From Paracoccus hibiscisoli (lineage in GTDB: Bacteria > Pseudomonadota > Alphaproteobacteria > Rhodobacterales > Rhodobacteraceae): a stretch of DNA of 64,000 nucleotides. The notes beneath the pieces were generated by a model. It was given only the letters and a program-made list of their open reading frames with translations, did not search any database and had not been told where the DNA came from. The position numbers were made by a program, and so were the translations under genes. This document shows, piece after piece, positions 1 through 1,770 of the stretch (position 1 is its first letter; each line of letters begins with the position of its first letter). The DNA lies in contig NZ_SUNH01000008.1 in the NCBI RefSeq assembly GCF_005048265.1, positions 124,001-188,000 on the forward strand. Direction: 5' to 3'.

Positions 1-43
1 GGGCCGAGCTGAATGCCCCTCGCCATCGGGCTTGAACCGTGTA

Positions 44-57
44 TGGATGGCTCCCGC
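44..57 (+). repeat. Left inverted repeat of the IS1111-type element
   Basis: The motif TGGATGGCTCCCGC matches the complement of 1367-1380 at all 14 positions. It lies beyond the 3' end of the transposase gene. Confidence 0.85.
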
Positions 58-300
58 GTGGCAAGAGGCTTGTGATATTCGGCATCTGGTCGGGTGCAGC
101 CATGTATTCGGCGTCTGATCTGCGGTAATCCGCGCGCCCTGATGAACGTCCGCCTGAGGTGTGGGTCCCTATCAATGGCACGCGCCCAAGGCGCTCCGGT
201 TCAAACGGGGTGTCCCTGCCTCTTTTCCGTCAGTTTGCCATCATCTCACGGTGCCCTCGCCATTTCGGTCAGGCCGCGAGCGGCCTGTAGTTCAAATCGC
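58..300 (-). ncRNA. Candidate seekRNA/bridge RNA region of the IS1111-type element
   Basis: This is the only sizeable non-coding stretch inside the element, about 240 bases between the transposase stop and the left inverted repeat. In IS1111-type elements the guide RNA that pairs with target and donor DNA is encoded in the non-coding segment downstream of the transposase, which is exactly this place. No structure was computed and the RNA limits are unknown. The call rests on position and family knowledge. Confidence 0.35.
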
Positions 301-1305
301 TCATGTTGGGCGCCAGACCTCGCCCGTTTTCAACATGGCCCAGATGGCCCGCGCCATGCGATTGGCCAAGGCTATGGCAGCAACCTTGAGCGGCTTGGTC
401 GCGATCAGTCGTCCTAGCCAGTCGGTGCCGGGGTCAGAGCGTTTGCGAGCGGAGATCACGCCCATGGCGCCAAGATAAAGCAGGCGTCGGATATACCGGT
501 TGCCCATCTTTGAGATCGACCCAAACCGTTCTTTGCCTCCGCTGGAATGGGGCTTTGGCGTGAGGCCCAGCCAAGCCGGTAAGTCACGGGCTGATCTGAA
601 GCTCGACACATCGGGCAGCGTTGCGGCCAGCACGCTGGCGGTAATGGGTCCAATGCCCGGCACAGTCTGGAGACGGCACGCGGTCTCGTCTTTCTCTGCG
701 TCGGCTTTGAGCTGACCGGTCATGACATCGATGCGCTGCTTCGTGTCGCGGAACTGGCCGGCAAGCAGATCGAGCGGCATCCGCGCCTCGGGCGGCAGAT
801 CGGCTGTTTCCGCCTCGGCAATGAGGCGGCCCATGTTGTGAACGCCCTTTGGGACCACGATGCCGAACTCTCCCAGATGCGCGCGGATTGCGTTGACAAG
901 CTGCGTCAGCTGGCGAACGAGAAAGTCACGCGTCCGGTGCTGCATCAGCACCGCCTGCTGCCTCTCGGTCTTGACCGGCACGAAGCGCATGTTCGGACGG
1001 GTTACCGCTTCGCAGATCGCCTCTGCATCAGCCGCATCCGTCTTGCCCCGCTTGACGAAGGGCTTGACGTAGGAGGGCGGGACCAGCCGCACATCATGGC
1101 CAAGCTTTGCCAGTTCCCGTGACCAGTAATGGGCTCCTGCGCAGGCTTCCATGCCAACGAGGCAAGGTGGAAAGCGTGAGAAGAACAGCAGGACCTGGGC
1201 TCTCCTGACCTGCCGCCGCACGAGGACGATGCCTTTGGCATCAACGCCATGAACCTGAAACACGTTCTTGGCCAGATTCAGGCCAATTGTGGCAACCTCC
1301 TTCAT
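301..1305 (-). CDS. IS110-family DEDD transposase with an altered first catalytic residue
   Basis: This 334-residue protein has the RuvC-like DEDD domain at the N terminus (about residues 5-150) and the transposase_20 (HhH-like) domain at the C terminus with VPGIGPITAS and GISKMGN-like motifs (about 210-300). The second acidic residue (GMEACAG) and the KTDAADA pair are visible. The first position reads IGLNLAKNVFQVHG. Family members normally have Asp where this protein has Asn10 (codon AAT), so the element may be inactive or act only with a partner in trans. Length is typical for the family (about 310-350 residues). The ATG follows a GGAGGTT-like segment within its own early codons and overlaps a copy of the terminal repeat motif. 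Confidence 0.88.
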   Translation of the reverse strand: MKEVATIGLNLAKNVFQVHGVDAKGIVLVRRQVRRAQVLLFFSRFPPCLVGMEACAGAHYWSRELAKLGHDVRLVPPSYVKPFVKRGKTDAADAEAICEAVTRPNMRFVPVKTERQQAVLMQHRTRDFLVRQLTQLVNAIRAHLGEFGIVVPKGVHNMGRLIAEAETADLPPEARMPLDLLAGQFRDTKQRIDVMTGQLKADAEKDETACRLQTVPGIGPITASVLAATLPDVSSFRSARDLPAWLGLTPKPHSSGGKERFGSISKMGNRYIRRLLYLGAMGVISARKRSDPGTDWLGRLIATKPLKVAAIALANRMARAIWAMLKTGEVWRPT

Positions 1306-1366
1306 GGATGGCTCCCTTCATTGGTAGGTGTGACAGCACCCAATGTGGCACATTGCGATGCCGGGA

Positions 1367-1380
1367 GCGGGAGCCATCCA
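1367..1380 (-). repeat. Right inverted repeat of the IS1111-type element
   Basis: This is the perfect complement of 44-57 and lies 62 bases upstream of the transposase start. The sequence immediately outside is the 3' part of an IS481 transposase relic. Confidence 0.85.
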
Positions 1381-1382
1381 CT

Positions 1383-1770
1383 CCATCAATGGCGCCGCAA
1401 TGGTTCACCGATGCAACGCCGAGCGCGTCAGATGAGGGATTGATGGCTGCAGGGCATAGAGGCAGTCATCCAACGGCAGCAGCCAGTGCCAACGAAAAGC
1501 GACGACGGGCGCCTCCCCGGCCTTGCGTCAGGATCGTCGATTGCGGTTCCTTTGGCCCGGTCTTGAGATCCTCGACCGTCTGACGCTTTCGCCACCGTCT
1601 TCTGACTGATGCCCATCTCCCGGCTTAGCATCGCGAGCGAAGCTTGCGATCATTCGGGCCGGGCCCTCGGACCGATGGCGGGGCGGGGCGGGCCTCATTC
1701 CTGCCGCTCTGACGGCGTGCGTGGTCGTGGCGCTTCCGTGGCGAACCCGGCCCACAATGCTTCCTTTCAT
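1383..1770 (-). pseudogene. IS481-family transposase relic (N-terminal part, frameshifted)
   Basis: Reading the minus strand in shifting frames gives the N-terminal segments of an IS481-type transposase in the correct order. They are VGRVRHGSATTTHAVRAA near 1755-1700, SREMGISQKTVAK and QTVEDLKTGPKEP near 1625-1545, then VVAFRW.WLLPLDDCLYALQPSIPHLTRSALHR near 1510-1410. At least two frameshifts separate them, and the rest of the protein (integrase core) is missing because the IS1111-type element begins at 1380. It cannot encode a functional transposase. Confidence 0.7.

What the first reader, a model, noticed from the sequence alone, without database searches (positions are those of the whole stretch)
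58..300. Likely guide-RNA (seekRNA/bridge RNA) locus of an IS1111-type element
The only long non-coding segment lies between the transposase stop and the repeat at 44-57, where IS1111-type elements encode their targeting RNA. The insertion site inside an IS481 transposase relic gives a natural target sequence to compare with the RNA loops.
Basis: partly seen in the sequence, partly recalled or inferred. Interest (0 to 1): 0.6.

Follow-up and report, generated by a model that had tools for sequence, protein, structure and literature searches.

The report
Guide RNA of a jumping gene
The stretch encodes the guide RNA of an RNA-guided jumping gene in a Paracoccus-type bacterium, whose RNA loops match the small DNA hairpin that the element sits in; the kind is known, and this copy has probably lost the ability to move.

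Summary
The finding holds. Window 40-1388 (minus strand) is an IS1111-type element and 58-300 is its 3' non-coding region. An RNA at 229-71 has a two-loop seekRNA/bridge-RNA fold with strong covariation (14 of 21 pairs change on both sides; no shuffle of 500 as high). The right target guide (204-197) pairs 8 of 8 with the right flank; the left guide fits the left flank in 5 of 6 plus a wobble. Over 47 distinct guide pairs, guides fit their own flanks far better than permuted ones (z 15.7 and 13.0); the two donor guides track the element's own ends, one strongly, one weakly. A model of the RNA also finds IS4321 and IS5075. Corrections: the ends are 40/1388, not 44/1380; the immediate target is a hairpin repeat (net insertion about 36-39 bp) inside an IS481 relic, whose motif occurs 32 times in this genome (reversed control 0). 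The transposase has Asn at position 10 where 58 of 61 aligned proteins have Asp, so this copy is probably dead. A new member of a known kind; I did not find the hairpin repeat in the papers searched.

The parts
40..1388 (-). whole insertion sequence, 1349 bp
   Evidence: ends common to relatives; uninterrupted CGCCATCGGTTCAAG with the same right-flank context on contigs C43 and C25
301..1305 (-). transposase gene, 334 aa, IS110-family RNA-guided (DEDD plus Transposase_20 domains)
   Evidence: model resembles IS621 and ISCro4
1276..1278 (-). codon 10: Asn at the first position of the DEDD motif
   Evidence: Asp in 58 of 61 aligned proteins, gap in 2
1367..1380 (-). left subterminal inverted repeat
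44..57 (-). right subterminal inverted repeat
1381..1388 (-). left terminal extension TGATGGAG
40..43 (-). right terminal extension TACA
71..229 (-). guide RNA as modelled (true 5' and 3' ends unknown)
   Evidence: only match of model R1 in the 64-kb window, 120.2 bits (the window's RNA is among the 40 that built the model); fold and covariation
197..204 (-). right target guide TTGAACCG
   Evidence: pairs 8 of 8 with the right flank CGGTTCAA; column test
182..194 (-). inner hairpin of the target loop
   Evidence: helix 3; place
173..180 (-). left target guide TGCCATTG
   Evidence: TGCCAT against left flank CGCCAT, 5 of 6 plus a wobble; column test
140..147 (-). right donor guide GTTCATCA
   Evidence: follows the left element end, z 4.5, n 40; not found in the blind scan
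122..137 (-). inner hairpin of the donor loop
   Evidence: helices 5 and 6; place
101..108 (-). left donor guide AATACATG
   Evidence: follows the right element end
25..39 (-). right flank: right half of the target hairpin
1389..1405 (-). left flank: left half of the target hairpin
   Evidence: arms CCATTG/CGATGG read by eye

Best explanation
58-300 encodes the guide RNA of an IS1111-type, RNA-guided transposable element. The RNA has two internal loops. In the first, the right target guide (5') and the left target guide (3') pair with opposite strands of a short target, CGCCAY|YGGTYCRAG. In the second, the right and left donor guides pair with the joined ends of the circular element (..TACA|TGATGG..). 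The DEDD/Ser transposase, bound to this RNA, joins the circle into the target between CCAY and YGG. Shown here by sequence: the element and its ends, the covarying RNA fold, and the match of guides to flanks and to element ends across relatives. Inferred from published IS1111/IS110 work: transcription from a promoter made at the circle junction, binding of the RNA by the transposase, and the cut-and-join chemistry. The usual target of the nearest relatives is a dispersed hairpin repeat of Rhodobacterales; here it sits in an IS481 transposase relic. This copy is probably no longer able to move by itself.
For: Gene family and domains. Repeats and end extensions in relatives. Consensus fold: 97.9% of cells paired, 14 of 21 pairs with changes on both sides, covariation 0.352 against 0.144 shuffled (0 of 500 as high) and at most 0.089 slid. 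Blind column scan over 59 elements: one column each for right and left target guide, z 11.8-13.5, permuted data at most 4.4. 47 distinct guide pairs: right guide 6.66 of 8 against 4.26 permuted, left 4.72 of 6 against 3.04, neither reached in 2000 permutations. Left donor guide z 12.0 in the blind scan, where one permutation reached 8.1, and 3.94 of 4 against 3.12 in 33 distinct end pairs. Guide order as published for IS1111. Model R1 finds the RNA in IS4321 and IS5075.
Against: No RNA was measured. The single-sequence fold is unremarkable and Rfam has no match. The right donor guide is weak (z 4.5) and was not found blind. Several elements fit poorly: right guide score 5 of 8 or less in L063, L076, L087, L096, L116, L122, L132 and L133, some of them by a register shift. 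The structure was derived from the alignment it was counted on, and elements are related, so z is not a probability. Asn10 speaks against activity of this copy.
Confidence: 0.93

Rival explanations
1. The region is ordinary 3' or decayed sequence, and the matches to the flanks are chance or reflect shared ancestry of element and site.
For: Single-sequence fold z only -1.98; no Rfam match.
Against: Covariation, own-flank matches against permuted flanks of the same elements, and the recurrence of the RNA in IS4321 and IS5075.
Confidence: 0.02
2. It is a bridge RNA, but the DNA target is a protein-coding motif of transposase genes, and the hairpin at the site is incidental.
For: The 98% identical copy L032 sits in a plain IS481 gene without hairpin arms (sequence, gene by eye; stem-finder). 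L062 and L064, with other guides, sit in what reads by eye as an IS630-type gene.
Against: Of 11 distinct elements with the GCCAY-type guide, the joined site has hairpin arms in four by script (L038, L033, L059, L061) and three more by eye (L034, L035, window, where the script preferred another pairing); L072 and L042 are doubtful, L032 and L058 lack them. The motif is unoccupied 32 times in this genome.
Confidence: 0.15
3. The RNA locus is intact but only a relic: kept by recent loss of the transposase, with no present function.
For: Asn10 in the only complete copy seen in the genome; a left-end remnant is the only other piece.
Against: None decisive; the RNA could still serve a transposase supplied by another element. 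This does not conflict with what the locus is.
Confidence: 0.75

Closest known systems
IS1111-family seekRNA elements (ISEc11, ISKpn4, ISPst6, ISPa11; PMC11187229)
   Same: Downstream non-coding region, subterminal repeats with asymmetric extensions, top-strand complement before bottom-strand match, no added target bases, palindromic targets (REP, attC) in some members.
   Different: Other target; their RNA was purified and sequenced, this one only predicted. Their sequences were not compared here.
IS4321 and IS5075
   Same: Model R1 finds the same RNA about 70 nt after the stop codon (45.3 and 40.7 bits); first guide AACGGAA pairs with the right flank TTCCGTT, 7 of 7, best of a small scan without control.
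   Different: About 38% identical transposase and another target (terminal repeats of Tn21-type transposons, known from a title in a reference list).
IS621 bridge RNA (IS110 group; PMC11208160, PMC11208158)
   Same: Two-loop RNA with target and donor guides; similar protein fold.
   Different: There the RNA lies in the long left end; here in the right end, with long subterminal repeats.
ISPmar4 of Paracoccus marcusii pMARC3 (PMC3832669, passages)
   Same: Host genus, IS1111 group, similar length (1343 bp).
   Different: Repeat given as ATGGc/tCCGCCCC; sequence not compared here.

Membership tests
IS1111 family | Transposase with DEDD RuvC domain, PF02371 domain and GL-P----S(T)G motif | tested here: met
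   GLTPKPHSSG and conserved E53, D90, D93; fold like IS621/ISCro4
IS1111 family | All four DEDD residues present in this copy | tested here: not met
   Asn at position 10; the lineage has Asp (58 of 61, gap in 2). Read as decay of this copy, not as another family
IS1111 family | Subterminal inverted repeats with longer left than right extension (published 7 and 3 bp) | tested here: met
   14-bp repeats; extensions 8 and 4 nt as counted here, equal to 7 and 3 if the repeat is lengthened by one base, which is mismatched in this element but paired in many relatives
IS1111 family | Long non-coding region downstream of the transposase gene | tested here: met
   243 nt against 61 nt upstream
IS1111 family | Guide matching the top strand of the target lies 5' of the guide matching the bottom strand | tested here: met
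   published order
IS1111 family | No target duplication | tested here: met
   flanks compared with uninterrupted sites; for the window the left side is blurred by a loss of about 290 bp
IS1111 family | Promoter formed at the circle junction | tested here: inconclusive
   TTGCCA-17-CATGAT, 9 of 12 consensus bases, in the window element; 6 to 9 in the 14 elements tried; no control
IS1111 family | RNA co-purifies with the transposase and is needed for movement | not testable with these tools
   needs an experiment
IS110 group (IS621 type) | Guide RNA in the long left end, no long subterminal repeats | tested here: not met
   RNA is downstream of the gene and repeats are 14 bp
REP sequences mobilised by RAYT (for the target hairpin) | GTAG- or CGTC-type tag beside the palindrome and a RAYT gene | not tested
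   definition recalled and from search listings only

The most novel reading that the evidence does not exclude
A lineage of RNA-guided elements in Rhodobacterales has specialised on a so far undescribed mobile hairpin mini-element (net about 36-39 bp, variable but self-complementary stem, fixed loop) that itself spreads into transposase and perhaps other genes; the guide RNA reads the fixed loop, so one guide opens many ready-made sites in each genome.
Probability: 0.5. Interest if true: 0.6.

Novelty: new member of a known kind. Interest (0 to 1): 0.45.

Why it matters
It gives an IS1111-type guide RNA with all four guide segments assigned in one alignment and tested against permuted controls, and 47 distinct natural guide pairs with their flanks from one subfamily. 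Such a set could serve to predict targets or to choose compact RNA-guided recombinases. It also shows a dispersed hairpin as a recurrent landing pad, as known for REP and attC sites, and exposes that hairpin as an object worth study.

Tried and rejected
Folding the single sequence did not give the consensus structure and is weak evidence. Rfam found nothing above threshold in the region (one weak match elsewhere) and, in five hairpin-bearing loci, a tRNA and one weak hit. The imperfect 24-nt inverted match 95-118 / 1428-1451 was considered as an extra target contact and set aside: it lies about 40 nt outside the site; no separate test was made. The IS481 gene as target proper was given up for the hairpin inside it. 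That the hairpin stem is copied from host DNA was looked at by eye and not supported: copies with GCCATGG arms have the same arm in unrelated sites. Insertion in multiples of three only was also dropped: net lengths of 35, 37 and 38 occur. The Pfam scan of 70 open stretches across hairpins was too thin to say which genes are preferred: most stretches matched no family, and the open frame may be the wrong one.

Rows dropped. Of 120 loci with a computed repeat pair, 59 were used: 38 had no repeat pair at the expected place, 10 were too near a contig end, 6 had no recognisable repeat core, 7 were set aside as duplicates. In 9 of the 59 the left end was first set wrong and was corrected only; L014 was moved by 3 nt there to a setting that may be wrong, L107 lacks the GATG, and L058 has a duplicated right end. 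The structure alignment holds 40 of the 59. Covariance search: 30 sources given, 27 matches in 26 of them, of which L047, L040 and L013 are weak (22.8, 22.3 and 15.9 bits); none in L223 (IS5708), L043, L012 and L030; E-values are rough because calibration was shortened. In one search, L225 gave no guide match (4 of 7), its ends being set on a longer repeat. One search keeps one partner per site for 38 of 95 sites and by its filter could only show net lengths of 29 to 48; the unfiltered list (partly cut) also has other lengths, such as 76, 20 and 10.

Papers: PMC11187229 (outline, first two of nine parts, sections 8, 9 and 13, passages), PMC11208160 (section 12 and passages), PMC11208158, PMC3832669 and PMC1525189 (passages); all others as search listings only. 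That the hairpin repeat is not in print rests on searches of an open-access library.

Full report
What is there. The window starts inside an insertion sequence read on the minus strand. A 334-aa IS110-family RNA-guided transposase is encoded at 1305-301, with perfect 14-bp subterminal inverted repeats at 1367-1380 and 44-57. In the plasmid collection the closest relatives are a 98.2% identical element on a Paracoccus marcusii plasmid and about 86% identical ones on four P. yeei plasmids. The window's genus group includes G121, whose contig length equals that of P. mutanolyticus NZ_CP030239.1, so the host is a Paracoccus-type bacterium.

Exact ends. In relatives the sequence common to copies extends past the repeats to TGATG on the left and, as a rule, ACA on the right. 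Comparison of flanks with uninterrupted sites gives TGATGGAG-repeat ... repeat-TACA, window 40-1388. For the window, the same right-flank context with the uninterrupted motif CGCCATCGGTTCAAG exists in the own genome on contigs C43 (L150) and C25 (L143). Beside its left flank the window lacks about 290 bp that C43 has, so that side of the comparison is blurred. A second uninterrupted counterpart, of the P. yeei site in L034, is L140 in the own genome (compared by eye).

The RNA. An alignment of 40 of the 59 usable relatives (A2) folds into two hairpins, each with an internal loop: 97.9% of cells paired, 14 of 21 pairs with changes on both sides, covariation score 0.352 against 0.144 in shuffles (0 of 500 as high) and at most 0.089 when partners are slid. 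The structure was derived from the same alignment, so the slide control flatters it; the shuffle control keeps the columns but not relatedness.

Target guides. For every alignment column I scored the RNA against the element's own right flank (reverse complement) and own left flank, with flanks permuted among elements as control. One column each stands out: right guide z 11.8 and 12.9, left guide z 12.2 to 13.5, where permuted data reach at most 4.4. Reduced to 47 distinct guide pairs, the right guide scores 6.66 of 8 (permuted 4.26, largest of 2000 permutations 4.90) and the left guide 4.72 of 6 (permuted 3.04, largest 3.49). Elements are related to one another, so z is not a probability; but the control uses the same RNAs and the same flanks. 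In the window the right guide TTGAACCG pairs 8 of 8 with CGGTTCAA, and the left guide TGCCAT fits CGCCAT in 5 of 6 plus a wobble. The P. yeei copies have TCGGACCG and flanks such as TGGTCCGA. Misfits exist: right guide 5 of 8 or less in L063, L076, L087, L096, L116, L122, L132 and L133.

Donor guides. Further downstream, RNA bases follow the right end of each element (TACA, CACA, CAGA, CATA, GACA, TAAA, CAAA): z 12.0 in the blind scan, where one permutation reached 8.1, and 3.94 of 4 against 3.12 permuted in 33 distinct end pairs. The segment GTTCATCA follows the left end more weakly (6.04 of 8 against 5.61, z 4.5, n 40, none of 2000 permutations as high) and was not found in the blind scan. 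In both loops the right guide precedes the left one, the order given for IS1111 targets in PMC11187229.

Tie to named elements. A covariance model built from A2 finds the RNA in IS4321 (45.3 bits, E 2.5e-9) and IS5075 (40.7 bits, E 3.3e-8), and in all in 26 of 30 sources, the window included; L223 (IS5708), L043, L012 and L030 gave nothing and three matches are weak. In IS4321 and IS5075 the first guide AACGGAA pairs 7 of 7 with the right flank TTCCGTT, the best of a small scan without a control. The predicted protein structure (mean pLDDT 88.7) matches IS621 and ISCro4 best and the TIGR-Tas proteins next.

State of this copy. The first Asp of the DEDD motif (position 10) is Asn here; it is Asp in 58 of 61 aligned sequences with gaps in 2. 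In IS621, mutation of D11 abolished recombination (PMC11208158, passages); that position 10 equals D11 rests on the order of the motif, not on a superposition. Besides this copy, the genome search shows only a left-end remnant on contig C59.

The target. The motif CGCCAYYGGTYCRAG occurs 32 times in the own genome and its reversed control never. The form AACGCCAYTGGTYCGAG occurs in 43 of 125 genomes of the genus, control none. GAACGCCAYYGGTYCRAG occurs in 64 of 390 genomes of the order, with one control hit, and in 6 of 289 of the class, counting the own genome and one of its family, with two control hits. The motif is the loop of a hairpin whose stem varies but stays complementary: mean stem score 6.98 over 57 sites against 5.56 (sd 0.15, largest of 200 5.98) with right arms permuted. 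Alignment of IS481 copies with and without the hairpin shows clean 36-nt gaps. Over 38 sites with an empty counterpart among the loci held, the net insertion is 35-39 nt in 37 and 43 in one, within a filter that allowed 29-48. Several of these sites are paralogues, and the loci held are mostly insertion sequences, so a preference for transposase genes is not shown. Of 11 distinct elements with the GCCAY-type guide, four sit in such a hairpin by script and three more, the window included, by eye. I found no description of this repeat in searches. REP sequences as targets of IS110-family elements are known (PMC1525189, passages), as are attC and REP targets of IS1111 elements (PMC11187229).

Verdict. 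Its novelty is that of a new member; the added value is the assignment of the guides with controls, the finding that this copy is probably inactive, and the landing-pad repeat.

Noticed in passing
1276-1278: Codon 10 of the transposase gives Asn where 58 of 61 aligned proteins have the first Asp of DEDD: the copy is probably inactive.
   Followed up: yes
1666-1680 (minus) and 31 more places in the own genome: Unoccupied copies of the target motif, the loop of a dispersed hairpin repeat of Rhodobacterales with variable but self-complementary stems. How it spreads is unknown.
   Followed up: partly
G000 contig C59, 121-179 (L055): A left-end remnant of a second insertion of this element in the same genome, again next to a GTGGCG half-site.
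   Followed up: partly
L150 and L143 (IS481 copies on contigs C43 and C25): A different palindrome, with arms GAAAACAGTCC and GGACTGTTTTC, is inserted in the same IS481 copies.
   Followed up: no
L014, L017, L018, L020, L027, L031, L068, L086, L090, L130, L131: Relatives whose guides and right flanks share TGTTGCRMAA-like sequence; this recalls terminal repeats of IS6/IS5-type elements (recalled, not tested).
   Followed up: no
L062, L064 flanks: Two relatives with other guides sit in what reads by eye as an IS630-type transposase gene, with target guides matching that site for L062.
   Followed up: no
window left flank, beside 1405: About 290 bp present in the C43 paralogue are missing next to the insertion.
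   Followed up: partly
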